A stretch of 64,000 nt of DNA from an uncultured Rhizobiaceae bacterium. Its GTDB lineage: Bacteria > Pseudomonadota > Alphaproteobacteria > Rhizobiales > Rhizobiaceae. Position 1 is the stretch's first letter, and every line of letters starts with the position of its first letter. Location: positions 2,728,001 to 2,792,000 of the forward strand of contig CATOTF010000002.1 of the NCBI GenBank assembly GCA_951813045.1, read 5' to 3'. Under the pieces are notes generated by a model that was not told the DNA's origin, ran no database searches, and was given only the letters and a program-made list of their open reading frames with translations. Made by a program: the position numbers and the translations under genes. Shown in pieces: positions 20,617 to 39,856 of the stretch.

Positions 20617-21726
20617 TTAGCGATCAAGGACGTCTCGTAACTCAACAAGATTGGAACGCACTCGTAAAAGATCGAATCCAATCGTTTCCAAATGCGACTT
20701 AATAATACTGGACGGTGATCCGTTCACAACCATAAACGGATTGACGTTCAATGCATTGGAAAGTTGCTTGTCGATTCTCACCCAAAGCGCATCAAGATTA
20801 CGCTGTTGGAAGACCTTACGAAAATCGTTGCGCGCAGCAGTCAATATACCGTGGTACGCATAGAGCTGACCATAGGTGAACCAGAAGCGATCATCGGCCC
20901 TGCGGTCAAAGCCAGTAAAGTTACTCAGCTCCATACGGCTTTGAAGAATATCAGAGGTACCACCGATATCACTCGTCACCCGGTCTAAAAACTGCAGCAA
21001 ATTATCGGCACGCGCGTCAAAATCAGCTGAACATGTGGCGAGTTCAACATTAAAATCCCGAAAGTGTTTCCTCGCTTCATTGAGGCGACTGGACGTAGAA
21101 GGCTGAATGAAGGGCCATGCGAATGTAATCACCCAGGCATCTTCGCGATAATTGGCCGATTCACGTGCTTTTTGAAGGTTAGCGTTTACCGACGAGGTGC
21201 CTCGCACCCTTCCCAACCGGTCAACCAGTTCAATAGCTGTTCGCCGTGTGGCCTGATTGATGCCCAATTGAAACGCGGCCTTGTTATCCATGAACGGTGT
21301 ATATTTCCAATCCAGACCAAAAAACCCGGATTTATATAATGGCAGGGATGGGACCCAACGGTTCTGGTTTATATTGAAATCAATCAATGCACCGGTCACC
21401 TGTACCATGGCGGATGGAGCGCATGTGCTTGAGCCCTCTCCGCCCAGTTTTTCACCCGCAGATACTGAATTCTCGTCTAAACTCAGACCTGCAACATAAT
21501 CAGGATTCCAACCTGTCCACCTCTGAGTGGTCCATGTCAGATGGCTGTATCCAATTATCAGCAACAGCAAAACAACAATGACAGGTATCTTGATAAACCA
21601 GCCACGGCCTCGCACCCATTTGGTGAATGCCACAAATGGCCAAAGAAGCCCTGCAATTACCCAGCCTATTCCACGCCCGGCGTAATTGAACATTCGCACG
21701 AAAAAATTCACGATCGGATCCAGCAT
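20617..21726 (-). CDS. DUF2333-type membrane protein
   Basis: 369 residues, function unknown. One membrane segment near residues 48-68 (FIKIPVIVVLLLLIIGYSHL) follows a short amphipathic region with a second hydrophobic stretch (about 18-36), and a roughly 300-residue periplasmic part follows. The sequence fits the DUF2333/COG5345 family as I remember it (RWTGWNPDYVAGL, DIGGTSDILQSRMELSNFTGFDRRADDRFWFTYGQLYAYHGIL). ATG 21726 has GGAAGGG five bases upstream. It is the last gene of the long minus-strand locus. Confidence 0.75.
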   Translation of the reverse strand: MLDPIVNFFVRMFNYAGRGIGWVIAGLLWPFVAFTKWVRGRGWFIKIPVIVVLLLLIIGYSHLTWTTQRWTGWNPDYVAGLSLDENSVSAGEKLGGEGSSTCAPSAMVQVTGALIDFNINQNRWVPSLPLYKSGFFGLDWKYTPFMDNKAAFQLGINQATRRTAIELVDRLGRVRGTSSVNANLQKARESANYREDAWVITFAWPFIQPSTSSRLNEARKHFRDFNVELATCSADFDARADNLLQFLDRVTSDIGGTSDILQSRMELSNFTGFDRRADDRFWFTYGQLYAYHGILTAARNDFRKVFQQRNLDALWVRIDKQLSNALNVNPFMVVNGSPSSIIKSHLETIGFDLLRVRSNLVELRDVLDR

Positions 21727-21852
21727 CAATGCCCTTCCAGCTTAATAAACTATGCGTTGTCAGCGTAAAATCATCGCAACGCTTTTGAATTCAGATACCG
21801 TGCGGGCATTCCAACAAATCCAGGAATTGAGCAAGCACGATATGTATCAATA

Positions 21853-23139
21853 TTATTGGTGCATACCAAACATATCCGATCGGTAGCGCGATTTATTTGA
21901 TAAATAGGTATCTCTAACCTGTTCGACAACGGCTTCTTTTAACGGCTCACCCCAAGTTTGATAATCAGCGTAAAACGACGGTTTATTGAACACATACCGC
22001 GACAGATAATCAAAGGGAACGTAATCGGATATCAACCTGTTCACCAACCACTGATCTTCGTGCCCGGGTTTTGCTCTGGTTAGAATAAATCGGCCCCGAT
22101 CATCAATTTCATCCAAGTCCACATTATTCCAATTTTCATATTCTCGTTTTGCCCATAAAAGAAACGGCAAAGTCCCCTCTTCTTCCACCATTCGGGAATT
22201 CGAGTTCATCCAGGACTTCATCCAACGCTGGCTGGTAATATCATGTTTTTCTTTTGGATCGGCATGGTGAGCAAGCATCGCCACCAAAGTGCGAATGCGT
22301 TGATCGATATAACCGGACGGTTCGATCCACGATCCTCGGGGAATATCTACCCGTTCCGTCTCCACAAGAAACCGGTACACAAGCTCCTTGTCTTTACGAT
22401 CAATATAACTCACCTGCCAAGGGCGCGAACGGCGGAACCCGGGCGCTGATGGATCACCAATTACAGTCGTTTCACGTTCGTCAATAAAAACATAAACCCC
22501 GCCAAAATGGCTTGACCAGAACGTGTTGTGGCGAAAAACAAGCTCCGTGGGGACAAGATCATTTGTGCGGATATCACCTGTTTTCTGCGCAAGATCGACC
22601 ATACGTTGAAGCATGGCGTCATCCCGCCAAGCATTGGGTTCCTTACGCAACCTGTCCATAAGAAGCCGAAGATCGAGCGCCTTTTGCGCCAGATTCTGTC
22701 CGGTAAAAACCTTAAACTCCACCTGTTCTATCGATAATAGGTCTTCGATATCCCGTGCTTCCAATATAGGATCATCAATCTCCCCATAAATTACATCCTT
22801 GATCGTCAGCGCATTGATTGCTTTCGCATTACCGTCAAAAAACTGATGCATCAGTTTCCCGGTATTCGAAAACTCCGTGTGTACCACCGGCAGTTCCAAC
22901 TGTTGCGGTGACAGAATAATAAATCGACGGTTTACTCCGCGCGGATCAAGATACTGATTGTCATCCAACTCCACCGCTACTTCCGGCGAGAATCCGGTCA
23001 TATCAATACGGAAAGTTTTCAGTTTTGTCGGCTTCAGCCCAAACCCCTTAAGCGCCTGATTATAACGCTCGATTAGATGCGGTTCAGAAACCCGCATCAT
23101 TCGACCAAAAATCAACTCGGACTGTTCAAGGCGTTTCAT
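21853..23139 (-). CDS. Conserved protein of unknown function (possibly DUF6638)
   Basis: 428 residues without signal peptide or membrane segment, so probably cytoplasmic. It is Arg- and Trp-rich with an even mix of charged residues. It resembles proteins annotated DUF6638 that accompany AAA ATPases in marine alphaproteobacteria; this is from memory and unverified. It follows the AAA ATPase gene by 76 bases and precedes the DUF2333-type gene by about 125. No catalytic motif is evident. Confidence 0.65.
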   Translation of the reverse strand: MKRLEQSELIFGRMMRVSEPHLIERYNQALKGFGLKPTKLKTFRIDMTGFSPEVAVELDDNQYLDPRGVNRRFIILSPQQLELPVVHTEFSNTGKLMHQFFDGNAKAINALTIKDVIYGEIDDPILEARDIEDLLSIEQVEFKVFTGQNLAQKALDLRLLMDRLRKEPNAWRDDAMLQRMVDLAQKTGDIRTNDLVPTELVFRHNTFWSSHFGGVYVFIDERETTVIGDPSAPGFRRSRPWQVSYIDRKDKELVYRFLVETERVDIPRGSWIEPSGYIDQRIRTLVAMLAHHADPKEKHDITSQRWMKSWMNSNSRMVEEEGTLPFLLWAKREYENWNNVDLDEIDDRGRFILTRAKPGHEDQWLVNRLISDYVPFDYLSRYVFNKPSFYADYQTWGEPLKEAVVEQVRDTYLSNKSRYRSDMFGMHQ

Positions 23140-23215
23140 AGAATATGCGTCTCAAAAATGCATGACAAAAACACGAATAGGTTGCGAGGAATTGCATTTA
23201 AAAACCCAAACCTCA

Positions 23216-25120
23216 TCACCAGCGCCCGTCTTTTTTCATCGATTCCATCTCACCAATCGCTTTTTCGCGTTGGCGTTCGCGGCGGATGATGTCTTCGACG
23301 GCGGCGTTGTCCGATTTATCGGTGTAGCGGAATTCGGAATCGGCATATCGGTTGATCTCCTGCATCACCATATTCATCGTGAAGGGTGAGCGCAGTTCGG
23401 CTATCATATCTCTTTTGATATCGTAGTCATGATGCAGGAAGACTTCTGGAGCTTCGAACCATTCATCAGGCAATTCGATATCCATCGCCCGCATTTTGAT
23501 GGCATCAGTAATATTCTTAATCGCGCGGCCGGTGAACCGGGGTTCGGCGGTCTTGATCATGTGCAGATAAGTACCGACGTCAGCCAATGATTTCGGGTCG
23601 CCCACATCATTCATGAAGCGGTCATACACCGTCTTTAATCCGTCTTCCTGCGGTTTGGACAATTCCTGATAAGCCTCGCCAACAGCTTTTTGAATCACCT
23701 GCGCATCGAACAGCTCATGATCACCCAGCGGAATGTCGTGGTTCTTACCGGCAAGCAGGGCAAAGATGTCGATATAGTCGTCCCGGGTCTGCGGCCCATC
23801 GACCAGCCAACGGGCTCCTGCCCTTTGGCGCAGCGCATCGTCAACGTTCTCTGGATAGTTTGAGAACATGCCGAATGAGCAATTGCCCCGCACGACCGTA
23901 TTGGCCCCGGCAAAGCTCTCCATCAAAACGGCCGTAACTTCCTGTTGACCGGCGGACGCGCGATCATCGGACCGTTTGGCGGCGATCTGATCGATATCGT
24001 CGACCGTGCCAAAACCGATTGTCTTGGTGTTCAGAACGTTGGAGACAAATTGTTTGCAGTTCTGCCCGGACTTACCCTGGTAGGACGAAATCTCATCTAC
24101 ACCAAAATTCTGATAGGTAAATCCGTAGCCAGCGACCTCACAATAGTCATTGATCATACCCGCAATCATTTGAATAAGGATCGTTTTCCCCGTTCCCGGC
24201 GAGCCATCGCCGATGAATGTAAACAGGAAACCACCCAGTTCCACGAACGGATTCGTCTGACGTTCAAAATCATAGGCCATCAGCATTTTCGATAGTTTTA
24301 TTGCCTGATATTTTGCAATGTGATTGCCGATAATTTCGTTAGGTTTTTTAAACTGCATCACCAGTTTGGAGCGTTTTGCGCCGGGCGCGACATCAAAGCC
24401 GTTCAGTTCGAACCCATCACTTTCAAGCCGCAAATGTGTCTGTTCAAAAGAGCCAAGTGCCGTGAAACGGGAACGACGTTGAAGGAGTTCATCCATCGCC
24501 AGACGCGCAGCTTCCCGTGCCCGCGAAGTCATAACCTTATCGTCCGGTGCGTCTTCTATTGCCGTATCCAACCCTGCGACCAGCCCCTTCAAAACATCCT
24601 GCGGTGTATCAAACAGGAAGTCTGGCTCTTCCACATCACTTGCGGGCTCTCCTTCTTCAGCCAGCATTTGCAACAAATACGCGGAAGCAGAAAAAGCCGC
24701 GATGTAGGATGATGATTCTACCAGTGCGCGAAATCGATCAGTCTCAACGGCAGAAAGGTCTCCACTCACATTCTTTTTTGTAAGGGCATCAAGGCCAGTT
24801 TGTTCAGCAAACAGATCACTCACTGCCAAAGCAACGGCAAGTGCACGACGGGTTTTATAGACAAGACCGTGTTGCGCCAAAGATAACATGGCGTCACCGG
24901 CATTAATCGTTTCGACCGTCTTGAGAAACTCGACCTTGTTGGTTGCCTTGGTGCCAGCCGTTGAAACCGTCGACACAAACCGTCGGCGCGTCCCCGCCAA
25001 TTCCGTTTTGCTTTGCGTATTGCCGGTAACCAGTTGAACAAAGTTCGTCACCAATGACTGGGCAACTGGGAGATGCTCTTCAATGTCAGATTCTTTTAGA
25101 GTCGTGAGTGCTGCATCCAT
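23216..25120 (-). CDS. AAA-family ATPase
   Basis: 634 residues. An N-terminal helical region of about 225 residues precedes the ATPase core. Walker A is GDGSPGTGKT (about 304-313) and the Walker B region reads TIGFGTVDDIDQIAAKR, with Asp-Asp-Ile-Asp instead of the common DExx. An arginine-finger-like stretch DDALRQRAGARWLVDGP and a C-terminal AAA lid follow. ATG 25120 is preferred; a TTG at 25126 overlaps the stop of the gene before it. It likely works with the two flanking cytosolic proteins as an energy-providing module, which is an inference from linkage. Confidence 0.85.
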   Translation of the reverse strand: MDAALTTLKESDIEEHLPVAQSLVTNFVQLVTGNTQSKTELAGTRRRFVSTVSTAGTKATNKVEFLKTVETINAGDAMLSLAQHGLVYKTRRALAVALAVSDLFAEQTGLDALTKKNVSGDLSAVETDRFRALVESSSYIAAFSASAYLLQMLAEEGEPASDVEEPDFLFDTPQDVLKGLVAGLDTAIEDAPDDKVMTSRAREAARLAMDELLQRRSRFTALGSFEQTHLRLESDGFELNGFDVAPGAKRSKLVMQFKKPNEIIGNHIAKYQAIKLSKMLMAYDFERQTNPFVELGGFLFTFIGDGSPGTGKTILIQMIAGMINDYCEVAGYGFTYQNFGVDEISSYQGKSGQNCKQFVSNVLNTKTIGFGTVDDIDQIAAKRSDDRASAGQQEVTAVLMESFAGANTVVRGNCSFGMFSNYPENVDDALRQRAGARWLVDGPQTRDDYIDIFALLAGKNHDIPLGDHELFDAQVIQKAVGEAYQELSKPQEDGLKTVYDRFMNDVGDPKSLADVGTYLHMIKTAEPRFTGRAIKNITDAIKMRAMDIELPDEWFEAPEVFLHHDYDIKRDMIAELRSPFTMNMVMQEINRYADSEFRYTDKSDNAAVEDIIRRERQREKAIGEMESMKKDGRW

Positions 25121-25122
25121 AT

Positions 25123-26307
25123 TCAAAAATCCCTCAATACCTGACCACCGGATACGACGTGGGTTTTATATCCGGCAAAGATTTCATCCGGTTTTCCGCT
25201 GGCATAAATTGCCTGATAGGCTTCGTGTGGAATCAGGGCATGCCTTTCATAGGCGCTAACGCCCTGACGGACGGCTTCCAGATCGTTGGTTTCAATGTGA
25301 TAAGCCTGTTTAGCGGGTGCTGATCCAAATAGTCCCCATTTTGCGGGCGTTTCGGAAATCGAAAACAATTCCTGTACAGTCCAGGATAGCATCCAGGCGC
25401 TTTCTGCTCGGCTGACATTCTCCAAAATATTTTCGACCACCCGCCCATGACTGGTAACACCCGCGGAATAAAACGGCCCCATAACGATACGACGAATCTG
25501 GGTTGGGTGCAGGGAATCAAAATCCCTATCCATATTATCGGCTATTGTCGCCAGGGTCAGGCTGTAGCTTGAGTTTTTCTCACAAAAATCATCGAACTGG
25601 TGCGCCAATTCTGGATTGAGCAAGCCGCCGATCGGGAATGGAATATCAAGGTCTTTTTTGATCTCGATTCCATCCATCAAAAGCTTCTTCATATTCGGCG
25701 ATGAGTCTTCGATCACTGCCATATAAACCAGTGGTAAATTGGCGGTGCCATCAAACGCGCCCCAGTGAACCACATAAAACGGTCGGCCCGTTTTCGGGTT
25801 CACTGATACCTTTACCGACTTCGGCAGGGTTAGCGGTTGAAAGACGTCACCTTTCTGCACTTCATCAAGGTAAAGCCGCTTCGCCATGGATTTCTGCATG
25901 GGCTCCGGAAACTTTTTCTTAAGCAAAATATAGTCGATCATCTCCTGACGAAGTTCATCAGATGACGGCATTTTCGCCAGTTGAGCACCGGCTGTACGCG
26001 CATCAGTATCAAGGTCCAAGACATTTTGGAAAAGCGGGTACCCACTTTCCGCCTGATTGATACGGAAACGTTTTGCAAAGCTCACGCGGTTTCGCCAAGC
26101 GTCGAATGAATGTTGCAACCGCCCGATATATTCGGTCAACACCTTGCCAGTTAGTTGATGGTGATAAAGCGGGGAGTCATCTTCGCGTAAATAGACATCC
26201 AAGCCATCAAGTGCAGATTCAATCGCATCAAAGTAGCGACGTGAAGCATCAGCGCTCGAATGGTTTAAAGTAGACTCAGCCGTATCAGTATCATCTTGTA
26301 CAGGCAT
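25123..26307 (-). CDS. Unrecognised conserved protein upstream of the AAA ATPase
   Basis: 394 residues, no signal peptide or membrane segment and no HExxH or other obvious catalytic motif. The N-terminal 110 residues are helical. A central beta-rich part carries VNPKTGRPFYVVHWGAFDGTANLPLVYMAVIED, and the C-terminal part includes a phrase on GPFYSAGVTSHG. The stop codon touches the start region of the AAA ATPase gene and the gene follows the coiled-coil gene by 20 bases, so the three are probably co-translated. I cannot name a function. Confidence 0.6.
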   Translation of the reverse strand: MPVQDDTDTAESTLNHSSADASRRYFDAIESALDGLDVYLREDDSPLYHHQLTGKVLTEYIGRLQHSFDAWRNRVSFAKRFRINQAESGYPLFQNVLDLDTDARTAGAQLAKMPSSDELRQEMIDYILLKKKFPEPMQKSMAKRLYLDEVQKGDVFQPLTLPKSVKVSVNPKTGRPFYVVHWGAFDGTANLPLVYMAVIEDSSPNMKKLLMDGIEIKKDLDIPFPIGGLLNPELAHQFDDFCEKNSSYSLTLATIADNMDRDFDSLHPTQIRRIVMGPFYSAGVTSHGRVVENILENVSRAESAWMLSWTVQELFSISETPAKWGLFGSAPAKQAYHIETNDLEAVRQGVSAYERHALIPHEAYQAIYASGKPDEIFAGYKTHVVSGGQVLRDF

Positions 26308-26327
26308 ATTGTGGCTCCAGAGACCGC

Positions 26328-27416
26328 TTATGCCTGACCCACATAGTCCGCTTTACTGTGTTTATCCATAACATCCTGAAACCGGCGTGCAAAAGCATCA
26401 TCGGCCAATTGTTTGCGCCGTTGAATATCTTTAGTTGAAACCATGTTTTTTTCATGCATTTCGAGCAGGTCGCCAATATGGCTTTGGGCTGCAGCACCAA
26501 TGCCGGCCATCGTACTTTCCGCAGCTGTGTCGACCTGATTACCCAGCGTGTTGATCTTATGGGCAACATCCTGTTGTGCCGCGGTCTTCAAGGAATCTTC
26601 TAAAGCCTTGTAAAGAACAATACGTTGTTCGGTATCAATCGTCAGCTTGTTGATCAATGTCGCCTGCGCCGCTTTTTGATTGTTCAATGAATCTACGAAG
26701 GTCTGGAACATAGACGTATACCGTTCAAGCGTTTGGCTCTCCGCCAATAGTTCCTGCTCTTTTGCCTGCATGGCGTTATATTCGGTCGCCATTTTTGACC
26801 GTTCGCCTTCGAGGTCAGCTCTTTTTTGCTGATCACTGGTAACAGAAATCTGGTTTTCAAGGTCAAGCAACATTGGGTTGAGTTCTTCGATCCGACCCTG
26901 AGTTTCCTCCAAGTTCGCAATCGTTCCTTTACGGCGTTCAATTACCTCACGAAGGCTCGCTTCCGATGTCTGATAACGTTCTGTCAACACCGCTTCCTGA
27001 TCCTGCAAGATGCCGGTAATCGTATCCGACTTGGTCAGCAATTCTTGAAGATTTCCTGCAAGTGACATGTTACGCACCCGGTCAGTGCGCATACGTTGGG
27101 CTTTCTGTTTGGAAAATATTCCCACGAAACTTTCCCAAGATGTATAGCTTTTCATCGATTCAAATTCGGCACCAAAAACATTGGTGGCGTCTTCCAGCCC
27201 GATAATAAGGTCGGCAATATTACCTTCCATCGTTTTTTGCTGACGCAGTACATCCTCAATCCGTGCGTCCTCAATATCGAAATCGGCATCACCAACGGTT
27301 TTTGCCTTGGCAACTTCCTCAAGCAAAACGCCGCTCTGCTTAATTTTTTCGCGCATCTCCGAAACCGTGCTCTTGGTTTTCTCGATCTCACGATCAAATT
27401 TGCTCATACTGGCCAT
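26328..27416 (-). CDS. Coiled-coil protein (TelA/KlaA-like layout, unconfirmed)
   Basis: 362 residues, almost wholly helical with long heptad-rich stretches, for example IANLEETQGRIEELNPMLLDLENQISV, then Gln/Glu-rich segments and AAQATLINKLTIDTEQRIVLYKALEDSL. The general layout recalls the TelA/KlaA toxic-anion-resistance family, but I do not see enough conserved motif to assign it. GAGAGGA sits about five bases before the ATG. It is the first gene of the downstream cytosolic module. A 134-base gap separates it from the M50 fusion gene. Confidence 0.6.
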   Translation of the reverse strand: MASMSKFDREIEKTKSTVSEMREKIKQSGVLLEEVAKAKTVGDADFDIEDARIEDVLRQQKTMEGNIADLIIGLEDATNVFGAEFESMKSYTSWESFVGIFSKQKAQRMRTDRVRNMSLAGNLQELLTKSDTITGILQDQEAVLTERYQTSEASLREVIERRKGTIANLEETQGRIEELNPMLLDLENQISVTSDQQKRADLEGERSKMATEYNAMQAKEQELLAESQTLERYTSMFQTFVDSLNNQKAAQATLINKLTIDTEQRIVLYKALEDSLKTAAQQDVAHKINTLGNQVDTAAESTMAGIGAAAQSHIGDLLEMHEKNMVSTKDIQRRKQLADDAFARRFQDVMDKHSKADYVGQA

Positions 27417-27466
27417 GAAGTCCTCTCCCGAAATTGACGGATCATCGTTCGTTTATTCGACGACTT

Positions 27467-27489: not shown

Positions 27490-27550
27490 GGGCGCAAATT
27501 TCCAGCACAGGCCGTTAGATTACGAGGAAACTTATCTATAAAACGGGGAT

Positions 27551-29695
27551 TTATACACCCATTTCACGAACCAACACTTTTAACACCTGACGCTTTGCAC
27601 GCGAGAAAAAGCTCTGCGGTTCACCCTGGATAATGGCGACACCGCGGACCACTTTTTGTGGCACGACAATTGTTTCATTTTCATTTGGTTGAAGGGCTAC
27701 AGAATATGCCGCCTCGATTGGGCGTAGTTTGTCTTTGTCGGCTTCTTCAATTGCAATTGAACCACCAAATGGCAGAGCCAGGTATGGCTCATCTAACTGT
27801 TCGTTGCTTGCCTCCGCCACTTCAGTCACACGCACATCAACAATCGGCAATTCGAGGTTTTCGGGAACAAATTTTGCCTCGGTTCCAGCAGCGAACCTAA
27901 AGACATTTTGTTCGCCGACATAACCCTTAATTCTTGGAGCATTACCAGCTTGTAGCACTGCCATAGGTGCATTCGGGTTTACCCAAAGGCCCGGGTGAAG
28001 CTCAGAATCCATATCCGCAATCTTACCGTTAAACGGCGCACGAACCATCAGTTTTGATTTAATCCGCTGCAACCCTTGCAGTTCTTCGCGCACTTCTTTG
28101 AGTTCATTTTCCAACACGATCAACGACGCACGATCTTCGTCATCGGAACCAGTTCGATCAATTCGACTTTCAATCAATGCCTGACGTTCATTCGCCAAAA
28201 CAATGCTGTTTTCCAGCTGGGGCGCCGCAAGTTGAAACAGTAATTGGCCCTGTTTCACATTCGAACCATTCTTGATGTCAAACGACGTTATTTGGGCCGG
28301 GAATGGAGCAAATATCGATTGCTCCTTTTCCGCGGTCATCATCGAGGGAATAGAAATCTGTGTAGACCACGGAATAATTGCCAATGTCGCTAAGCCACCC
28401 GCAACAAGCGAGGAAACCCAAAAACGTTTTGAAGACATAATCTTTCCTTTAATCGACCACCAATGTTTTATTTCCCGCCATATCGGCATCAAAATGAACC
28501 AGAGAATCTCCACCACAAACAGCAGGATGCCGACGATTTTGATGAAGAATGCGTAAACAAGAATCGCAATGCCGAGGAACAGGAAAAAGCGGTAAATCCA
28601 GGTTGCCCAAGCATGGAGAATAATAATACGCCGCAAGTTGGGCGGAAGTGGTTCCGGCGCAGGTTCCCCCAATCCGAACAATATCTCACGCATACGCCAG
28701 CGTGCCATTTCAAAACCACGGCTCTGCATGTTTTGAAAGCCAAGAGTGTCGGAAAGAATATAATATCCGTCAAACCGCATGAGCGGGTTCAGGTTTACCG
28801 CCAGCGAGGTAATCCAGGACGTGGTTGCAATCGCAAATACACAAAGCCTAAGGCCACCATCCGGCAGGAACGCCCATAACAGTGTTGCCAGAGCTGCTAA
28901 CCCGAGTTCAGTGAATATCCCCGCACCATCAATCATCAGTCGTTTTCGGCGTGAGGTAAGCCGCCAAGCGCCGCTTGTGTCGGTGTATAAAACCGGCATC
29001 AACACCATGAAGGCAACACCAATGGTTGGCACACGCAGTTTATAGCGCACGCTCATATAGGCGTGACCCAACTCATGAATAGATTTCACAAAAACCAAGC
29101 TCAAACCATAAAGAGCGGCACCCTGCCACGACAGCATAAACTGAAAAGTACCGGTAAAGTGTTCCCATTGGCGGGAGACCAGATACACCCCAAAGACACC
29201 GCATAACACAATGATCCACACCGCAGCTCGGGTGAATAACGGACTGACCAGCCACCACGTGGCGTGCAAAAACTTATCGGGTCGAAATAATGGAATTCTA
29301 AAAAACAGATAGGAATGCATTACTGTCGATAGGATCGACCTCTTGTCGGATTCCACCTTGGCCGCCATGGCCTTAAAATCATTGTTAGGGATATCGCGCA
29401 CCAACGCGTTCGAAATCAGGAAATGCGTTGCCTGCCCGATTTCTTCCTCGGTAATCTCACGACCGAATTCCGCACGAACGCGGCGAACGAGTTTATCAAC
29501 AGTGCCCACCCGCCAGAGCATAAGCATATCAAGCAGTTCACGACCAATTTCGAAATATCGATTGGAGACTGAATCATAGATTACCCAAGCCGGTGCTCCA
29601 CATGATTGAGCAGCGGTCGGGACAATTTCAAGATCGTCCCTGAGAATTGGAAGGGGTAAGTCTTCCTTTTCCTGTTCTTTTAATAACCCGTCCAT
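27551..29695 (-). CDS. PqqD-like / M50 site-2 protease / HlyD fusion protein
   Basis: 714 residues with three parts. A PqqD-like domain (about 35-100; YDSVSNRYFEIGRELLDML) comes first. It is followed by a multi-pass M50 membrane metalloprotease with HELGH (207-211) and the second motif LNPLMRFDGYY (about 302-312). Last comes a membrane-anchored HlyD/biotin-lipoyl adaptor (about 440-700; APFPAQITSFDIKNGSNVKQGQLLF). Such fusions occur beside HlyD and TolC genes in several phyla, but their role is not established to my knowledge. It may cleave or guide the N-terminal signal of an exported protein. Its start overlaps the HlyD gene by 16 bases. Confidence 0.85.
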   Translation of the reverse strand: MDGLLKEQEKEDLPLPILRDDLEIVPTAAQSCGAPAWVIYDSVSNRYFEIGRELLDMLMLWRVGTVDKLVRRVRAEFGREITEEEIGQATHFLISNALVRDIPNNDFKAMAAKVESDKRSILSTVMHSYLFFRIPLFRPDKFLHATWWLVSPLFTRAAVWIIVLCGVFGVYLVSRQWEHFTGTFQFMLSWQGAALYGLSLVFVKSIHELGHAYMSVRYKLRVPTIGVAFMVLMPVLYTDTSGAWRLTSRRKRLMIDGAGIFTELGLAALATLLWAFLPDGGLRLCVFAIATTSWITSLAVNLNPLMRFDGYYILSDTLGFQNMQSRGFEMARWRMREILFGLGEPAPEPLPPNLRRIIILHAWATWIYRFFLFLGIAILVYAFFIKIVGILLFVVEILWFILMPIWREIKHWWSIKGKIMSSKRFWVSSLVAGGLATLAIIPWSTQISIPSMMTAEKEQSIFAPFPAQITSFDIKNGSNVKQGQLLFQLAAPQLENSIVLANERQALIESRIDRTGSDDEDRASLIVLENELKEVREELQGLQRIKSKLMVRAPFNGKIADMDSELHPGLWVNPNAPMAVLQAGNAPRIKGYVGEQNVFRFAAGTEAKFVPENLELPIVDVRVTEVAEASNEQLDEPYLALPFGGSIAIEEADKDKLRPIEAAYSVALQPNENETIVVPQKVVRGVAIIQGEPQSFFSRAKRQVLKVLVREMGV

Positions 29696-31176: not shown

Positions 31177-31266
31177 GTTCCGGTTCACAAGTTGGATTGC
31201 TGCTTGAAAAAACATACAGCAATACGATCAATATTCAGTGTCGAACCCCACCAAAAAAGATGCGGT

Positions 31267-32109: not shown

Positions 32110-32180
32110 TCAGTCCTTTTTAAGTACGCGTGTGCATCCGTCCGCGTAATAAGTGTCGTTTAAAAATCGTGACATCCCGG

Positions 32181-32681: not shown

Positions 32682-32744
32682 TGGACTTGTCACGGTTTAG
32701 TTCCGTGTCCTTGAATTGGATTAATCCCATCAAGGAGAACTATT

Positions 32745-33020
32745 ATGGCACGAGGCCACACAGACGAATTCAAGCGTGAAGCGGTGCGTATTGCGCTGAC
32801 CAGCGGACTTACCCGGAAACAAGTGGCATCAGATTTGGGGGTCGGCTTTTCGACGTTATCGAAATGGATACAACAATCCCGGCCTGATGACCTTCCACCA
32901 TCGGTTGATATTGATCTGGCCAAAGAGAATGAGCGGCTTCGCAGAGAGGTTCGTCTCCTCACGGAGGAGAGGGAGATATTAAAGAAGGCAACAGTGTTCT
33001 TCGCGGGTCAAAGCAAGTGA
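32745..33020 (+). CDS. IS3-family OrfA, first copy
   Basis: 91 residues: an HTH_Tnp_1-type helix-turn-helix (KREAVRIALTSGLTRKQVASDLGVGFSTLSKWIQ) followed by a leucine-zipper region (ENERLRREVRLLTEEREIL). It binds the IS ends and regulates transposition together with OrfB. AAGGAG lies eight bases before the ATG. It is identical in sequence to the copy at 33571 and overlaps the start of OrfB by four bases. Confidence 0.92.
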   Translation: MARGHTDEFKREAVRIALTSGLTRKQVASDLGVGFSTLSKWIQQSRPDDLPPSVDIDLAKENERLRREVRLLTEEREILKKATVFFAGQSK

Positions 33021-33550
33021 GATTTGCGTTTGTCGAAGAACACAGGAAACACGTTCCGGTGGATCGGCTTTGCCATATTCTGAATGTTACATCGCGTGGT
33101 TATCGTGCCTGGCACAACCGCCCTGTTAGTCAACGGCAGCGCGATGACATGGTGGTTCTGGCGCACATCCGTGAACAGCATCACTTGAGCCTTGGCAGTT
33201 ATGGTCGCCCGAGAATGACGCAGGAGTTGAAGGAAGCCGGCCTTGCTATTGGTCACCGCCGTGTTGGCCGCCTGATGCGCGACAACGGCATTCGAGTGGT
33301 CAGAACACGCAAATACAAAGCTACGACCGATAGCAATCACCGCTTCAACATTGCGCCTAACTTGCTGGGGCGGAACTTCCAAGCGGATAAACCCAACCAG
33401 AAATGGGCAGGTGACATCAGCTACATCTGGACCCGTGAGGGCTGGCTGTATCTGGCAGTGATGATCGATCTACATTCACGCCGTGTGGTGGGTTGGGCTG
33501 TCAGCAATGGACTTGTCACGGTTTGGTTCCGTGTCCTTGAATTGGATTAA
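33017..33550 (+). pseudogene. IS3-family OrfB, truncated first copy
   Basis: Matches the intact OrfB at 33843-34700 as far as HSRRVVGWAVSN, losing the rest of the DDE catalytic domain, including the final Glu. The frame then runs for a short way into the left end of the second IS copy and stops at 33550. It cannot be an active transposase. Confidence 0.9.
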
Positions 33551-33570
33551 TCCCATCAAGGAGAACTATT

Positions 33571-33846
33571 ATGGCACGAGGCCACACAGACGAATTCAAG
33601 CGTGAAGCGGTGCGTATTGCGCTGACCAGCGGACTTACCCGGAAACAAGTGGCATCAGATTTGGGGGTCGGCTTTTCGACGTTATCGAAATGGATACAAC
33701 AATCCCGGCCTGATGACCTTCCACCATCGGTTGATATTGATCTGGCCAAAGAGAATGAGCGGCTTCGCAGAGAGGTTCGTCTCCTCACGGAGGAGAGGGA
33801 GATATTAAAGAAGGCAACAGTGTTCTTCGCGGGTCAAAGCAAGTGA
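33571..33846 (+). CDS. IS3-family OrfA, second copy
   Basis: 91 residues, identical to the product at 32745-33020, with the same ribosome site (AAGGAG) and the same four-base overlap with OrfB. It belongs to the complete IS copy. Confidence 0.92.
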   Translation: MARGHTDEFKREAVRIALTSGLTRKQVASDLGVGFSTLSKWIQQSRPDDLPPSVDIDLAKENERLRREVRLLTEEREILKKATVFFAGQSK

Positions 33847-34700
33847 GATTTGCGTTTGTCGAAGAACACAGGAAACACGTTCCGGTGGATCGGCTTTGCC
33901 ATATTCTGAATGTTACATCGCGTGGTTATCGTGCCTGGCACAACCGCCCTGTTAGTCAACGGCAGCGCGATGACATGGTGGTTCTGGCGCACATCCGTGA
34001 ACAGCATCACTTGAGCCTTGGCAGTTATGGTCGCCCGAGAATGACGCAGGAGTTGAAGGAAGCCGGCCTTGCTATTGGTCACCGCCGTGTTGGCCGCCTG
34101 ATGCGCGACAACGGCATTCGAGTGGTCAGAACACGCAAATACAAAGCTACGACCGATAGCAATCACCGCTTCAACATTGCGCCTAACTTGCTGGGGCGGA
34201 ACTTCCAAGCGGATAAACCCAACCAGAAATGGGCAGGTGACATCAGCTACATCTGGACCCGTGAGGGCTGGCTGTATCTGGCAGTGATGATCGATCTACA
34301 TTCACGCCGTGTGGTGGGTTGGGCTGTCAGCAACCGGTTGAAGAAAGACTTGGCATTGCAGGCTCTCAACCGGGCTTTGGCCCTTCGAAACCCACCGCCG
34401 GGCTGCATTCATCATACGGACCGTGGCAGTCAATACTGCTCTCATGATTATCAAAAACGAATGCGTGAACTGAAGTTTAAAGTGTCCATGAGCCGAAAAG
34501 GCAATTGCTGGGACAACGCCGTGGTCGAGACGTTCTTCAAAACACTCAAAGCCGAACTCATCTGGCGCGGCACATGGCAAACACGACAGCAAGCAACCGA
34601 CGCCCTGTTCCAATACATCAACGGCTTTTACAACAGCCGCAGAAGACACTCAGCAATAGGAGGAATGTCGCCCATCAAATTTGAACGAAAAACGAGTTAA
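33843..34700 (+). CDS. IS3-family OrfB transposase (intact)
   Basis: 285 residues starting at GTG 33843. An N-terminal HTH_21 region (YGRPRMTQELKEAGLAIGHRRVGRLMR) precedes the rve DDE integrase core: KWAGDISYIWT (first Asp), HTDRGSQYCS (second Asp) and NCWDNAVVETFFKTLKAEL (Glu). OrfA-OrfB fusion by frameshifting is typical of the family. Intact reading frames suggest recent arrival or activity. Confidence 0.93.
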   Translation: MRFAFVEEHRKHVPVDRLCHILNVTSRGYRAWHNRPVSQRQRDDMVVLAHIREQHHLSLGSYGRPRMTQELKEAGLAIGHRRVGRLMRDNGIRVVRTRKYKATTDSNHRFNIAPNLLGRNFQADKPNQKWAGDISYIWTREGWLYLAVMIDLHSRRVVGWAVSNRLKKDLALQALNRALALRNPPPGCIHHTDRGSQYCSHDYQKRMRELKFKVSMSRKGNCWDNAVVETFFKTLKAELIWRGTWQTRQQATDALFQYINGFYNSRRRHSAIGGMSPIKFERKTS

Positions 34701-34789
34701 ACGAGAACAGGATGCGGAATTAATACGGGACAAGTCCAGACAGATGGTGGTCTGATTTAAGAGAGACTCTAGCTCATCTGTTGTTTGTA

Positions 34790-35770
34790 TTATGCGGCTT
34801 GTTTGCGGTGTTGCAAGCGCCGCGTTTCGATGGTTTTTTGTTTGATCCTTTCTCTTCGCTTCAATATCTCATTTTTGCGCCCGAAGTAGACGTCCGCAGG
34901 CGTGAGATTACTCAGGCTCTCGTGGTATCTGTGATGATTATAATGTTCGATGAAAGCTTCGATCTGCCGGTTTAAGTCACTTGGTATGAAGTAGTGTTCC
35001 AGCAAGATGCGGTTCTTCAGGGTTTGATGCCAGCGTTCAATCTTGCCTTGGGTTTGCGGGTGATAAGGCGCACCGCGAACATGACCCATGCCTTTGCCAT
35101 CCAACCACTCTGCCAGATCACTGGATATGTAGCAGGGGCCATTATCAGATAGTAGCCGGGGTTTATGCGCAACGTTGGCCCTGTCGCAGCCTGAGGCCTG
35201 AAGCGCCATTTCCAATGTATCGGTCACATCCGATGTGTTCATGGTGGTACACAGCTTCCAGGCAATGATGTATCGCGAATAATCATCAAGGATCGTACTG
35301 AGATAGAACCAACCCCAGCCAATGACCTTCAGATAGGTGAAGTCTGTTTGCCACAGCTGGTTGATGGCTGTGGTCTTGTCGCGGAACTCACTGGCAGCTT
35401 TCATGACGATAAATGCCGGGCTGGTGATCAGGTCCAGGGCCTTGAGCAGTCGGTACACTGAGCTTTCCGATACAAAATAGGCCTTCGTGTCTGTGAATGT
35501 CACAGCCAGTTCACGAGGAGACAGTTCCGGTTGATCAAGGGCCAGATCAATGATCTGTGCCCGTATATTTTCTGGCACGCGGTTCCAGGCTCTGTTGGGA
35601 CCAGAACGTTTGTCTTCCAATCCTGTCTCACCCAATCGCTGATACAAATCATACCAGCGATAAAAAGTTGGCCGTGAGACGCCAAGCTTATCAAGTGTCA
35701 CCTTGGCTGGCAGATGTGATTGTTCAACAATTCGGATGATTTCCAGTTTCTCAGATGCTGGGTATCTCAT
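34790..35770 (-). CDS. IS3-family OrfB transposase
   Basis: 326 residues. N-terminal HTH_29-like part (EIIRIVEQSHLPAKVTLDKLGVSRPTFYRWY), then an rve DDE core with QTDFTYLKVIGWGWFYLSTILDDYSRYIIAW, LLSDNGPCYIS and PQTQGKIERWHQTLK. It overlaps OrfA by four bases (ATGA). The sequence is clearly different from the first IS element, so the two elements are unrelated insertions. Confidence 0.92.
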   Translation of the reverse strand: MRYPASEKLEIIRIVEQSHLPAKVTLDKLGVSRPTFYRWYDLYQRLGETGLEDKRSGPNRAWNRVPENIRAQIIDLALDQPELSPRELAVTFTDTKAYFVSESSVYRLLKALDLITSPAFIVMKAASEFRDKTTAINQLWQTDFTYLKVIGWGWFYLSTILDDYSRYIIAWKLCTTMNTSDVTDTLEMALQASGCDRANVAHKPRLLSDNGPCYISSDLAEWLDGKGMGHVRGAPYHPQTQGKIERWHQTLKNRILLEHYFIPSDLNRQIEAFIEHYNHHRYHESLSNLTPADVYFGRKNEILKRRERIKQKTIETRRLQHRKQAA

Positions 35771-36141
35771 TCGATATCCTCCCCATCCGCGATCATGCTT
35801 TTTTTAAGAAGACGGTTTTCCAGCGTGAGATCTGCCACGCATTCCTTCAGATCACGGGCTTCACGGCGCAGACCTTTGACCTCATCGGTGGAAGCCTCAC
35901 GCACTATATCGCCTGACAGACGCTTTTTACCGGCCTCCATAAACTCCTTCGACCATTTGTAGTACATGCTTTCAGCAAGACCTTCACGGCGGCACAGTTC
36001 AGCTATGCTGTCTTCACCGCGCAAGCCATCAAGCACAATGCGGATCTTTTCCTCCGCACTATACTGACGGCGGGTCTTGCGTTTGATGGTTCGGATCAAT
36101 TTCTCTGAACCTGATCCTTGGGTTCCTGATTTATGTCTCAT
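35767..36141 (-). CDS. IS3-family OrfA
   Basis: 124 residues from ATG 36141, opening MRHKSG. A helix-turn-helix (RRQYSAEEKIRIVLDGLRGEDSIAELCRREGLAESMYYKW) is followed by a coiled coil ending LTLENRLLKKSM. A longer frame from 36177 would begin in the IS end and is unlikely. It pairs with the overlapping OrfB. Confidence 0.9.
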   Translation of the reverse strand: MRHKSGTQGSGSEKLIRTIKRKTRRQYSAEEKIRIVLDGLRGEDSIAELCRREGLAESMYYKWSKEFMEAGKKRLSGDIVREASTDEVKGLRREARDLKECVADLTLENRLLKKSMIADGEDIE

Positions 36142-36190
36142 CTTCGCTCCATAAGGGCTACGATGAACCAAAATCATCTCTTAAGAAAAA

Positions 36191-39100
36191 TCAAACCTCT
36201 GTCTCATGAATGCTGACGGGGAACAGATTAAGCGGCGTTCCTGTTGGCGAGATATCAATGAAACCAGGCCCAACCGGTTCATATTCGGACGTGTAGTTTA
36301 AAGACGGTGCTGAGTACGTTAGTGTTGTGCCGTTAAATGAGAAGTCGTCCTGGCCGAACCGGGCAATGCTGGTATTGATCGCATCGGTTAATGATTGATA
36401 ATCGCCAGCATCAGTCGTTCCATCCTGAAGCGTCAGGTCAGCACTGATAGTATCACCCTGATTTACACCACCTTCAATTGTCAGAGTAAACCGTGCATCG
36501 GTTCCTTCGACTGCGGCGGTGTCACTGGAAAGCGTCCAGCGGGGTAAAATCTGAACCGTGACTGTCCCCGTATCAACACTCAAATCTACGTCCTGAACCG
36601 TGTATTCGAATTCCACTTCACCGGCAAACGTAGTCGATGCTTGAAAAATCAAAAACCCGAAAGGGCTCAAAGAAACAGTACCCTGTCCACCTGGAAGGAT
36701 AACCGGCAATCCAACGTCAATGGGTAGGCCATTGATCTCAGTAACAAGTGGTGTTCCGTCCGGAATAAAGTCGTTTTCCAAAACATTGATATTTACAGAC
36801 TCGCCAGCGAATGTGGATACTTGGTCATCAACCGCAACGACGGGATCATTTTCATCATTGAGTTCAATCAGAAGTCCAACATTCGCACGTTCAGCAGTCG
36901 CGATTGTGACGCCATTTTCCGGCGACACTTCCGTTGTCATCGCTGAAACATTCAAATTATAAATCGCATCCGTTCCCGTCTGCGGGGGGCGAAACACGAG
37001 GCTTGGAATGTCCAGAGGGCCAAAAACAGCTTCACCGCCGACTATCGGAATTGGAACACTATTCACCAGTATCTGGGCACCATCTGGTATATCCGATAAT
37101 TTAACCTCGGTAATTTCTTCGGAACCGTCGATATCAAACAGCTGCACTGATATTGTATTGGCAAGCAGTACGTCCTCATCGATTTCGCCGAACGCCTGCT
37201 GTACGATCAGCAAAGGCACATCGGCCACCGCATCAACCTCAAACGTCACGCTTTGGCTATCCACACTGACAGAGCCATCAACTTCAAAGTTCGTTGTCAG
37301 GAATGCAATGGTGACATCTTGATCTGAGTTTTGTACCGGAAGGATTCTGATAGCCGACCGTGTCCACGCCGTTATATCCACCTCTGTCTCATCAGCGTTG
37401 GCTTCAAAACTGAAGGTTCCATCGGTGATAATGACACCAGGTGGGATATCGAATGCGAGCACGGACTGGTTTTCCAAATCGTCTTCTGAAAATGCCGACA
37501 CGTCAATAATCTCGGTTGCCGTATCCTCATCCGAAGTAGGGTCGGGCTGGGTGATCACGAGTGTTACATCATCCACAACTGGTTGAATATCAAACGTAGC
37601 GAAGCTTGAAGTTGCAGCCGTACTGTCACTAACTGTATAGGTAATTGTTTCATTACCGGAGTAGTTTGGTGCTGGAATATAGGTGAAACTACCATCAGCA
37701 TTAATGGTTAATGCTGCGCCAACCGGCGTTACGTGGGTCATCCCGATAGGAATTGCCGTTCCAGAAGAATCCCGGGCACCAATCACGGTCAGTGCACCAC
37801 CCTGCGGATCAGCATCATCCGAAATTAATCCGTTTGCAATTGAAGCAACAATTGTAGTGTCTTCATCTTCTACATAAACATTTGAACCAGCAACTGGACT
37901 GGTTCCAGCGGCTGCAAACGATATCGTTGTTGTCACCCCAGCGGTCGAAATCACGCCGTCTGAAATTTCAAAATTGAATGTGCGGTCATCAACGCGGTTG
38001 AAAAACGCATCTGGATTATCGTTTGAATAGCTAAGTGACCGTAACGCGGTCTCATAGTTGGAAATCAGCGCAAAACCATCAAGTTCAAGGGATATCTCGG
38101 ATCCAGTATCCTCATATGTAGCAAAAATACCCAATTGGTCTAACATCACCGTATCAAAATTAATTTGATCACCGGGGTGAGGGTTTGATAGCGTAACCTT
38201 TGCAGAGCTCAAGAAATCACTGTCAAAATCCTCAATCTGCATATCGACATCGACAATCGACACAGGAACATCGCTATTTGTTCCCACTTTTGCACCATTG
38301 ACGTAAATTGCATTGTAATCATCACCGGCATCAGTCCCGTTCAAGTCCAGGCTTTGAGTTGGTGATGTAATGGGAGTTGGAAACGAAGCCACTCCGGTGT
38401 CTCCGTCCATGTCAAAATTCGTAAGCAATGTATGCGACGTATAAGTAACGATAAACTGGTTGGTACTGGCCCAGGCCAACCCGATTTGTGAACCGATCGC
38501 GCCCGTTCCCGGCTGTGTGCCAACCGCTGTTAACCCATTATCGCCGGAACTGACCTCAAGGTCAGTGCTGGCATTTACAGTATAGGAAACAACTTCGTCA
38601 CTGATTACCGCAACACTCTCGCGTGTGTCCGGCAAACCAGCCAGTCCTTCGATGTCCTTGAAAACGAGATTGACCATATTGGGTGGCGCCAATGTATCGG
38701 TGCCCGATACAAATATACCCCAACTGACAGACACTGAGCCTGGTGCCAGCACATCTTGCCCATCCTCATTGCCAATCACTTCGCCAATGTTGGTCACAAC
38801 AACCCGAAAGTCATCCATAGACCCATCACCGGATGCGACGGTCTCAAAAGTAGCTGAAACATCGTCGGTAAGACCAACCAACGTCGCCCTTAAATCAAAT
38901 GTTTGGACCGGGTTTCCATCTTCAGGGTCGAATTGAACAGCGCCTGACCATGTTGCAGTTGTGTTAGCTGTGCCAACAACTCCGTCATCAAGGTGCCCGA
39001 TAATCGGCTGCCCTGTGGGCTGAAGTTCAAATCCTTCAAGAATTCCCTGCCAGTCTGGAAGAGTGAACGAGGCGGATTGAATTTCTCCCGATTGCACTTC

Positions 39101-39856
39101 GAGGTTCCAGTCTCCGGAAAGGGGTTCCGACCCGGTGATATCATCCGAAGCAGCGATATCCGCACCGGTAGCCTGAGCAAGCAGATTTGCCGCGCGCTGC
39201 CCCACAATCCCTTCACCAAAGTTACACCCATAAATAAGGATGTCCCCTTCTTCACTCAAAGCTGAACCAATTTGCTTCAATGCTTCCGCGTGCTGACCAC
39301 GGATAGATCCTGCATCCAAAACTGAATTTCCCAACTGAAGCGCGCCTGCTGCCCCATGTGAAAAAATGTGAACGGCGTCATAATCATCCGATTGGGATAA
39401 TATGTCTGCTATTTGCAGGATTCCGTCGGAATCACCTTCCAACATATGAATGGTCACGCCTGGTTCAAGTGACGCAATTAACGTATCCAGCCCCTCAATT
39501 CCTGCATCGATAAAAACGATTTCGCGGTCTGTACGCCGCTCCGGCGGTCCGTCGATCCCATCTACATCACTGTCAGTCTCTAAACTTGGAGTTTCAGTTT
39601 CCAAAGCAGGTGCGTCCTCGATCATTTGGCGACCGGGCGATCCGTCACTTTGAATATCGGACTGGTTCTGTTCAAGATATTCGTCCGCGAACTGGGCGTG
39701 AGCGGATTGGCCTGCAGTATCCATCGCGGTCTCCAGCGCCGCTGCGTCCAATAGGAAGCGAGGCTCAAGAGCCCGCATCAAATAATCGCTGTTTTCTGGT
39801 GGAAGCAGGCTAGGCGATCTGCCTTTCTTGAAAATAGAATTGAAATTTCCCGGCAT
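36191..39856 (-). CDS. Truncated LEPR-x-LL / DUF4347 / cadherin-like surface protein
   Basis: 1221 residues from ATG 39856 (AGGTG upstream). There is no classic signal peptide. Near residue 30 it has RALEPRFLLDAAA, the LEPR-x-LL motif found at the start of very large repetitive surface proteins. A DUF4347 domain follows (about 110-270; REIVFIDAGIEGLDTLIASL, IFSHGAAGALQLG, DILIYGCNFGEG), then cadherin/Ig-like Asp-rich repeats (about 400-1090) and the start of a Calx-beta-like domain. The protein stops in mid-domain at a TGA supplied by, or next to, the IS end, so the C-terminus is missing. It is probably an exported adhesin, the likely cargo of the adjacent HlyD/TolC set. Confidence 0.85.
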   Translation of the reverse strand: MPGNFNSIFKKGRSPSLLPPENSDYLMRALEPRFLLDAAALETAMDTAGQSAHAQFADEYLEQNQSDIQSDGSPGRQMIEDAPALETETPSLETDSDVDGIDGPPERRTDREIVFIDAGIEGLDTLIASLEPGVTIHMLEGDSDGILQIADILSQSDDYDAVHIFSHGAAGALQLGNSVLDAGSIRGQHAEALKQIGSALSEEGDILIYGCNFGEGIVGQRAANLLAQATGADIAASDDITGSEPLSGDWNLEVQSGEIQSASFTLPDWQGILEGFELQPTGQPIIGHLDDGVVGTANTTATWSGAVQFDPEDGNPVQTFDLRATLVGLTDDVSATFETVASGDGSMDDFRVVVTNIGEVIGNEDGQDVLAPGSVSVSWGIFVSGTDTLAPPNMVNLVFKDIEGLAGLPDTRESVAVISDEVVSYTVNASTDLEVSSGDNGLTAVGTQPGTGAIGSQIGLAWASTNQFIVTYTSHTLLTNFDMDGDTGVASFPTPITSPTQSLDLNGTDAGDDYNAIYVNGAKVGTNSDVPVSIVDVDMQIEDFDSDFLSSAKVTLSNPHPGDQINFDTVMLDQLGIFATYEDTGSEISLELDGFALISNYETALRSLSYSNDNPDAFFNRVDDRTFNFEISDGVISTAGVTTTISFAAAGTSPVAGSNVYVEDEDTTIVASIANGLISDDADPQGGALTVIGARDSSGTAIPIGMTHVTPVGAALTINADGSFTYIPAPNYSGNETITYTVSDSTAATSSFATFDIQPVVDDVTLVITQPDPTSDEDTATEIIDVSAFSEDDLENQSVLAFDIPPGVIITDGTFSFEANADETEVDITAWTRSAIRILPVQNSDQDVTIAFLTTNFEVDGSVSVDSQSVTFEVDAVADVPLLIVQQAFGEIDEDVLLANTISVQLFDIDGSEEITEVKLSDIPDGAQILVNSVPIPIVGGEAVFGPLDIPSLVFRPPQTGTDAIYNLNVSAMTTEVSPENGVTIATAERANVGLLIELNDENDPVVAVDDQVSTFAGESVNINVLENDFIPDGTPLVTEINGLPIDVGLPVILPGGQGTVSLSPFGFLIFQASTTFAGEVEFEYTVQDVDLSVDTGTVTVQILPRWTLSSDTAAVEGTDARFTLTIEGGVNQGDTISADLTLQDGTTDAGDYQSLTDAINTSIARFGQDDFSFNGTTLTYSAPSLNYTSEYEPVGPGFIDISPTGTPLNLFPVSIHETEV

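What the first reader, a model, noticed from the sequence alone, without database searches (positions are those of the whole stretch)
20617..39856. Candidate ABC-less export or surface-attachment machine for a giant LEPR-x-LL protein
Ten minus-strand genes or remnants, several overlapping, combine a LEPR-x-LL/DUF4347 surface protein, a TolC-type channel, two HlyD-type adaptors, an M50 protease-HlyD fusion and a cytosolic module (coiled coil, unknown, AAA ATPase, unknown, DUF2333 membrane protein). No ABC transporter, as a type I system would need, is present. The AAA protein could supply energy and the M50 enzyme could handle the N-terminal LEPR signal. Seen: gene content, order and overlaps. 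Inferred: that they form one system.
Basis: partly seen in the sequence, partly recalled or inferred. Interest (0 to 1): 0.8.

Follow-up and report, generated by a model that had tools for sequence, protein, structure and literature searches.

The report
ABC-less exporter for giant LEPR proteins
The window holds a transposon-damaged copy of a widespread bacterial gene module that probably sends giant surface proteins carrying a short N-terminal tag out of the cell without the usual ABC pump; a second cluster of unknown genes beside it, including an AAA ATPase, is mostly found on its own elsewhere.

Summary
The genes are there, with corrections: a two-IS insert (32657-36225) truncates the giant LEPR protein and leaves only the last ~157 codons of the TolC-type channel. 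In relatives the first half recurs as a module: giant protein, TolC-type lipoprotein, short HlyD, GAF-HlyD, PqqD-like-M50-HlyD; an ABC gene lies within 5 kb in 3 of 80 loci. Of N-complete ORFs in 89 loci, the motif LExRxx[F/L]D[A/G]A is in 39 of 49 big adjacent ones and 0 of 418 small or mid-sized non-module ones. Four of 30 module genomes have no type I ABC exporter by three family models. The AAA/DUF half is separate: of 398 genomes 26 have the AAA protein, 89 an M50-HlyD, 3 both. A sister type carries a SecA-like ATPase in 15 of 19 loci chosen by M50; Kamneva et al. 2015 described that locus, role unknown. New here: the SecA-less branch and a likely substrate whose leader differs between types. 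Most likely: a leader-guided, ABC-less, perhaps Sec-powered exporter of giant surface proteins; the inner-membrane step is inferred.

The parts
36191..39856 (-). giant LEPR-XLL/DUF4347 surface protein, C-terminally truncated; leader motif LEPRFLLDAA about 30 residues from the start; Big_9/cadherin repeats
32657..36225 (.). nested insertion sequences: ISb left end 32657-32681 and body 34738-36225; ISa 33508-34738 plus a partial duplicate (300-nt repeat 826 nt apart)
32181..32656 (-). C-terminal remnant of the TolC/OEP-type outer-membrane lipoprotein channel
   Evidence: (relatives)
31267..32109 (-). short HlyD/RND-type periplasmic adaptor; N-terminus looks like a Sec signal peptide (read by eye; group hydropathy)
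29680..31215 (-). GAF-HlyD: GAF-like N-terminal domain, helix, HlyD domain
27551..29695 (-). PqqD-like domain (my reading of the model) + M50 site-2 protease (HELGH at residue 207, D309) + HlyD
26328..27416 (-). neighbouring block: coiled-coil protein (linked to the module in one group of relatives; not a core part)
25123..26307 (-). neighbouring block: protein without a Pfam family
23216..25126 (-). neighbouring block: AAA ATPase
21853..23139 (-). neighbouring block: DUF6638
20617..21729 (-). neighbouring block: DUF2333 membrane protein

Best explanation
The first half is a damaged member of an ABC-less, leader-guided tripartite export module for giant surface proteins. Shown by sequence: the module's parts and order, a conserved leader motif in the giants beside it, and the absence of a conserved ABC gene. 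Inferred: the cytosolic PqqD-like domain of the M50-HlyD protein binds the LExR leader and the site-2 protease cuts it at the inner membrane; the chain crosses the inner membrane through the Sec channel driven by SecA (the housekeeping SecA here, a dedicated SecA-like ATPase in the sister type); the three HlyD-type proteins and the TolC-type lipoprotein carry it to the surface. The CC-unknown-AAA-DUF6638-DUF2333 block is a separate operon that came to lie beside the module in one group of relatives. My split: the module serves LEPR giants 0.88; PqqD-M50 reads the leader 0.6; Sec-powered 0.4. The figure given is for the main claim, a dedicated ABC-less exporter of LEPR giants.
For: Module: in 80 loci found with the M50-HlyD protein, OEP in 69, short HlyD in 67, GAF-HlyD in 78, a giant beside it in 58. 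Nine type 1 loci picked from the 89 genomes give OEP 8, short HlyD 9, GAF-HlyD 7, giant 9. In 190 class genomes the 7 genomes with a DUF4347 hit of 155 bits or more (line drawn after seeing the scores) are all among the 10 with the M50-HlyD protein, and the 9 with weaker hits are not. Leader: of N-complete ORFs in 89 loci the motif is in 39 of 49 big adjacent, 4 of 34 big non-adjacent, 0 of 418 small or mid-sized and 0 of 342 module or block genes (43 and 800 are the same ORFs). T at +13 (46 of 50 giants) was not part of the search pattern. Leader and machine: residue +7 is D in the 39 type 1 giants, and in none of 6 sister-type ORFs read with a broad pattern (S in 4, N in 1, A in 1). No ABC: within 5 kb in 3 of 80 loci; G070, G109, G200 and G206 have no hit over cut-off to TIGR01846, TIGR03375 or TIGR01842 and none to the last two at E 1e-120 and 1e-100. 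Motor: SecA-like ATPase in 15 of 19 sister-type loci chosen by their M50 protein, and a sister-type module in 3 of 3 loci fetched for a second SecA; Walker A TGEGK[TS] in 16 of 18.
Against: No experiment. Type 1 genomes show no dedicated SecA: of 24, 22 have one full SecA_DEAD match (over 200 bits) and the other two (G494, G190) a second one that lies in a separate sister-type cluster; some also have 19-31-bit partial matches. The giants' N-termini are not hydrophobic like an ordinary Sec signal: best 11-residue hydropathy over 2.0 in 6% of 50, against 84% of 87 short HlyDs and 6% of 200 GAF/M50 N-termini. 24 of 30 module genomes have a type I ABC exporter over cut-off elsewhere. Pfam PqqD is weak: 1 of 58 type 1 proteins at E 0.067, the one sister-type protein scanned 22.9 bits, cut-off 23.4. 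22 of 80 loci show no giant beside the module, two of them (L031, L067) with about 22 kb in hand. Three of the 10 class genomes with M50-HlyD have no DUF4347 hit (G050, G109, G147). 10 of 49 big adjacent ORFs lack the motif; by their N-termini I take them for unrelated genes, but this was not tested. Four of the 19 M50-chosen sister-type loci lack the SecA-like gene, and two of the 18 SecA-like proteins lack the ATPase motifs. Many sequences counted are close kin.
Confidence: 0.68

Rival explanations
1. An unlinked type I ABC exporter powers the export and the module only supplies adaptors, channel and leader processing.
For: 24 of 30 module genomes have a HlyB, LssB or PrtD protein over cut-off, two more (G028, G208) have full-length matches below it, and G000 has a PrtD over cut-off. 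A Vibrio LEPR-XLL giant with C-terminal RTX is in print (one passage of PMC10868602).
Against: Four module genomes have none at the thresholds used (G070 and G109 rated 100% and 99% complete; for G200 and G206, the latter a single-chromosome MAG record of Nitrospira sp. UBC2, no rating was shown). No GGxGxD in the last 300 residues of any of the 50 large ORFs beside the module whose C-terminus was in hand; sister-type giants do have RTX repeats. A generic MsbA- or MacB-type protein is not excluded.
Confidence: 0.15
2. The module does not export the giants but cleaves, tethers or releases them at the envelope after export by another route.
For: The M50 protease motif is kept; large adhesins such as LapA are handled by a dedicated periplasmic protease (passages of PMC7730722).
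Against: A linked TolC-type channel and three adaptors are more than processing needs; the sister type carries a translocation-type ATPase.
Confidence: 0.15
3. The M50-HlyD protein itself forms the inner-membrane pore, with a SecA-like or other ATPase pushing (the proposal of Kamneva et al. 2015 for the SecA type).
For: Many-helix membrane domain in the model; proposed in PMC4452313.
Against: Intact HExxH and NPxxRFDG point to an enzyme; no pore was seen or tested.
Confidence: 0.15
4. The two halves form one machine and the AAA protein gives the energy.
For: Ten-gene order in L028, L029 and L033, and linkage in 9 of 80 loci, kept down to 46-47% M50 identity (L035).
Against: 86 of 89 M50-HlyD genomes lack the AAA protein and 23 of 26 AAA genomes lack the M50-HlyD protein; the block stands without the module in 8 fetched 20-kb stretches and in L023 and L024. 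The M50-to-CC gap (76-217 nt in 8 loci) is wider than the gaps inside the block (-4 to 27 nt, one of 384), though not wider than some gaps inside the module (up to 175 nt).
Confidence: 0.07

Closest known systems
Secondary SecA_DEAD / Peptidase_M50-HlyD / GAF-HlyD / HlyD (OEP) locus, Kamneva, Poudel and Ward 2015 (PMC4452313)
   Same: Same M50-HlyD, GAF-HlyD, HlyD and OEP parts and no ABC gene; I take my sister type (L135-L137, L139-L154, L156-L158) to be this locus.
   Different: The window's type has no SecA-like gene. The main text of that paper does not hold the words LEPR, DUF4347, cadherin or adhesin and, in the parts read, names no substrate. Here a giant LEPR protein is tied to the module.
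Type I secretion system (HlyB/HlyD/TolC; LapA, SiiE adhesins)
   Same: TolC-type channel, HlyD adaptors, giant repetitive surface protein.
   Different: No linked ABC exporter, a conserved N-terminal leader, no RTX found at type 1 C-termini.
Accessory Sec system (SecA2/SecY2) for serine-rich adhesins of Gram-positives (recalled)
   Same: A second SecA used for large repetitive adhesins resembles the sister type.
   Different: No dedicated SecA in the window's genome; SecY2 not searched; HlyD and OEP parts.
Daptide leader protease (NCBIfam NF041824) and PqqD-type leader-binding domains (latter recalled)
   Same: N-terminal domain plus M50 protease; 138 bits over residues 38-395.
   Different: Below the family cut-off of 300; fused to HlyD; a giant protein instead of a small peptide beside it.

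Membership tests
Type I secretion system | ABC exporter | tested here: not met
   None linked in the window; within 5 kb in 3 of 80 loci; none over cut-off genome-wide in 6 of 30 genomes, 4 of them without even a full-length weaker match. G000 itself has an unlinked PrtD over cut-off
Type I secretion system | HlyD-type adaptor | tested here: met
   Three HlyD-type proteins
Type I secretion system | TolC-type outer-membrane channel | tested here: met
   Remnant only in the window; OEP in 69 of 80 relatives
Type I secretion system | C-terminal signal / RTX repeats in the substrate | tested here: inconclusive
   Window C-terminus lost; no GGxGxD in the last 300 residues of 50 large ORFs beside the module; other C-terminal signals not tested
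Secondary SecA_DEAD module (Kamneva 2015) | M50-HlyD, GAF-HlyD and HlyD genes together | tested here: met
   GAF by homology only
Secondary SecA_DEAD module (Kamneva 2015) | linked SecA_DEAD protein | tested here: not met
   None in the window; one SecA_DEAD match in G000
LEPR-XLL proteins (NF012209) | LEPR-XLL domain over cut-off | tested here: met
   17.7 bits, cut-off 17
M50 site-2 protease | HExxH and NPxxxxDG in a membrane domain | tested here: met
   H207, E208, H211, D309 invariant in 58 sequences; Pfam M50 in 58 of 58 at E up to 0.1, window 22.7 bits, under the 27.2 cut-off
PqqD-like leader-binding domain | three strands then three helices; Pfam PqqD | tested here: inconclusive
   Order of elements seen in the model, no fold match to PqqD shown; Pfam weak
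Accessory Sec system | dedicated SecA2 | tested here: not met
   One SecA_DEAD match in G000; SecY2 not searched

The most novel reading that the evidence does not exclude
LExR leaders define a secretion route in Gram-negative bacteria of its own kind: a cytosolic PqqD-like domain picks the leader, a site-2 protease fused to a periplasmic adaptor cuts it, SecA (housekeeping in one type, dedicated in the other) drives the chain, and a HlyD/TolC duct places proteins of up to 10,000 residues on the surface, each machine type reading its own leader dialect.
Probability: 0.3. Interest if true: 0.92.

Novelty: new variant of a known kind. Interest (0 to 1): 0.72.

Why it matters
It offers a substrate and a testable leader for a widespread module whose broader role was called completely unknown in 2015 (PMC4452313), and a possible answer to how some of the largest bacterial proteins leave the cell without an ABC pump. 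It also sets apart a second conserved operon (CC-unknown-AAA-DUF6638-DUF2333) that still has no function.

Tried and rejected
Rejected: AAA as the motor. Rejected: giant-OEP fusions in two Azospirillum loci, which were over-long ORF starts. Rejected as real LEPR giants: four of the LEPR-8K hits in class genomes without the M50-HlyD protein (G056, G182, G169, G137); the stretches fetched around them held no module and no giant with the motif. Of 13 of 190 genomes over that model's cut-off, 7 have the M50-HlyD protein; G035, G036, G079 and G095 were not looked at. A 24-position model is noisy in six frames, and it also rang in one control genome.

Without result: VIA-align (library absent). The 50 Foldseek rows shown for each model are HlyD/MacA/MexA-type adaptors, so they say nothing on the PqqD, M50 or GAF parts. 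A profile search of PDB sequences gave MJ0392 (site-2 protease) at 2.1e-4 and RseP at 0.011 over the HExxH stretch. Paper searches (10 of 10); in their listings I saw no paper that names a LEPR substrate for this module. Read: PMC4452313 (outline, parts 2-4 of 7, term search); PMC12153261 (abstract and passages); PMC7730722 (passages); PMC10868602 (one passage); the rest in listing only.

Limits and slips. The genome samples are drawn by the tool and hold much close kin. One search scored two candidates per genome, so further copies are missed. The sister type was told apart by bits to A2 (273-366); G482 (partial) and the 521-bit hit in G253 were left out. L156-L158 were fetched because a second SecA lies there, so they are kept out of the 15 of 19; with them it is 18 of 22. 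L138 and L155 are not in that count. In one search L143's 794-aa ORF is a mislabelled GAF-HlyD and is left out (HExxH 21 of 21); the three HExGH misses of 85 in type 1 were not looked into. Alignment A4 holds one short HlyD row (L063) by mistake; OEP rang in 24 of 25 rows. The L028, L029, L033 and 16 other giants of the 80 run off the fetched DNA at their N-terminus.
Full report
What is there. The window is part of a 4.84-Mb two-contig genome whose M50 protein is nearest to those of Rhizobiaceae-group, Aurantimonadaceae and Ahrensia genomes. On the minus strand lie a LEPR-XLL/DUF4347 giant (39856-36191), two nested insertion sequences (32657-36225), the C-terminal end of an OEP-type channel, a short HlyD, a GAF-type HlyD, a PqqD-like-M50-HlyD fusion, then coiled coil, unknown, AAA, DUF6638 and DUF2333, followed by a fused trpEG. 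The locus is damaged: the giant lacks its C-terminus and the channel about its first 400 residues. The IS stretch has 70 matches in this genome, itself and fragments included. The genome's two other DUF4347 genes each lie against or are split around a 2.47-kb element, the two copies 99.96% identical.

Intact relatives. In L028, L029 and L033 a large ORF cut off at its N-terminus, OEP, short HlyD, GAF-HlyD, M50-HlyD, CC, unknown, AAA, DUF6638 and DUF2333 stand on one strand in the window's order, followed by a trpEG homologue, with no ABC gene. So the part lost in the window probably held no ABC exporter.

The module. In these 80: OEP 69, short HlyD 67, GAF-HlyD 78, giant beside the module 58, motif seen 38, CC/AAA block 9, ABC ATPase anywhere 6, within 5 kb 3 (ABC by a home-made profile). 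Short contigs and my ORF picking explain some of the misses. Nine type 1 loci picked from the 89 genomes gave OEP 8, HlyD 9, GAF 7, giant 9, ABC anywhere 2, within 5 kb 1. The longest open frame with DUF4347 is 10,025 codons. GAF-HlyD and M50-HlyD genes overlap or lie within 30 nt in 83 of 86 adjacent pairs.

The leader. In 89 loci, LE.R..[FL]D[AG]A within the first 200 residues is found in 39 of 49 big N-complete ORFs beside the module, 4 of 34 big ones elsewhere in the locus, 0 of 418 small or mid-sized ORFs and 0 of 342 module or block genes; the 10 big adjacent ORFs without it show not even a loose LExR and look like other genes. In the nine phylum loci it is in 4 of 7 big adjacent ORFs, a fifth has MYDAA for MFDAA, and one 293-aa ORF has it. 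In 50 giants the context is hydrophobic-x-LExR-hydrophobic-x-FD[A/G]A followed by A/G, small residues and T at +13 in 46. It is not a usual Sec signal by hydropathy. Six sister-type ORFs read with a looser pattern have LEPRLLFSA, LEERLLLSA, MEPRLLLSA, IEPRLLLSA, LEPRVLLNS and, in a 690-aa Nitrospira ORF, LEARVLLAG. Two of these six come from loci without the SecA-like gene (L137, and L166 beside L150).

The sister type and the motor. Weaker M50-HlyD hits (273-366 bits to A2) sit with a GAF-HlyD (GAF E 6.6e-12 in L135), a PqqD-like-M50-HlyD, a HlyD, sometimes SapC, an OEP protein in six of the loci scanned, often RTX giants, and a SecA-like ATPase with no match to the SecA wing-scaffold domain in the two proteins scanned. 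The SecA-like gene is in 15 of 19 loci chosen by M50, and all 3 loci fetched for a second SecA hold a sister-type module. By Pfam domain it lies within about 1.1 kb of the M50 gene in 14 of 19 genomes. Walker A is kept in 16 of 18. Of 24 genomes with type 1 only or found by type 1, 22 have a single full SecA_DEAD match; the second one of G494 and G190 lies in a sister-type cluster. Kamneva et al. 2015 found this SecA locus, noted the lack of an ABC gene, proposed SecA_DEAD as ATPase and M50 as pore, and called the broader role completely unknown.

ABC exporters elsewhere. Of 30 module genomes, 24 have a HlyB, LssB or PrtD protein over cut-off; G028 and G208 have full-length matches below it; G070, G109, G200 and G206 have none at the thresholds used. 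So a type I ABC exporter is common in these genomes but seems not to be required.

The other half. The AAA protein is in 26 of 398 sampled Pseudomonadota genomes (11 in the window's family, 13 in family f24, one each in two more), an M50-HlyD protein in 89; 3 have both, G387 and G390 on different contigs. The block stands without the module in 8 fetched 20-kb stretches and in L023 and L024. In the M50 tree the window and five linked rows form a fully supported group; the seventh linked row, L035, falls near it in an unresolved group with three unlinked rows; L030, L033 and L034 were not in the tree. So one joining event, or two, fits.

Structure. AlphaFold models of the M50-HlyD (pLDDT 86) and GAF-HlyD (pLDDT 88) proteins show a bbb-aaa start, a many-helix part and HlyD, and a mixed a/b start, one long helix and HlyD. 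Reading the starts as PqqD-like and GAF-like is mine, helped by Pfam hits in relatives, not by a fold match.

Verdict. A real, widespread ABC-less module with a likely substrate and leader; the energy source and mechanism are inferred; the AAA half is separate.

Noticed in passing
L025 12612-15084 and L026 11483-13955 (G000): A 2.47-kb element with 502- and 258-aa ORFs, 99.96% identical in both places, lies against one and within the other of the genome's two further DUF4347 genes, so all three giants of this genome look damaged by insertions.
   Followed up: partly
window 32657-36225: Two IS types, one nested at the end of the other, with 70 genome matches (itself and fragments included); the genome is IS-rich.
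   Followed up: partly
L023, L024, L119-L125, L128: A CC-unknown-AAA-DUF6638 operon, with DUF2333 in five of these ten loci, stands without the export module; function unknown.
   Followed up: partly
L039, L073: Nitrospirota giants end in a hydrophobic stretch followed by LPAW(G/R)HFDPLPVL, a possible C-terminal anchor.
   Followed up: no
L158 12488-14557, L174 4569-14729: A sister-type locus lies next to a ShlB/FhaC-type protein and a 3,386-aa ORF with a signal-peptide-like start, perhaps a two-partner secretion pair.
   Followed up: no
window 42325-44037: EAL-domain protein a few kb from the giant gene, on the other strand; c-di-GMP control is possible but untested.
   Followed up: no
L135, L136, L140, L147: SapC-domain protein inside several sister-type loci.
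   Followed up: no
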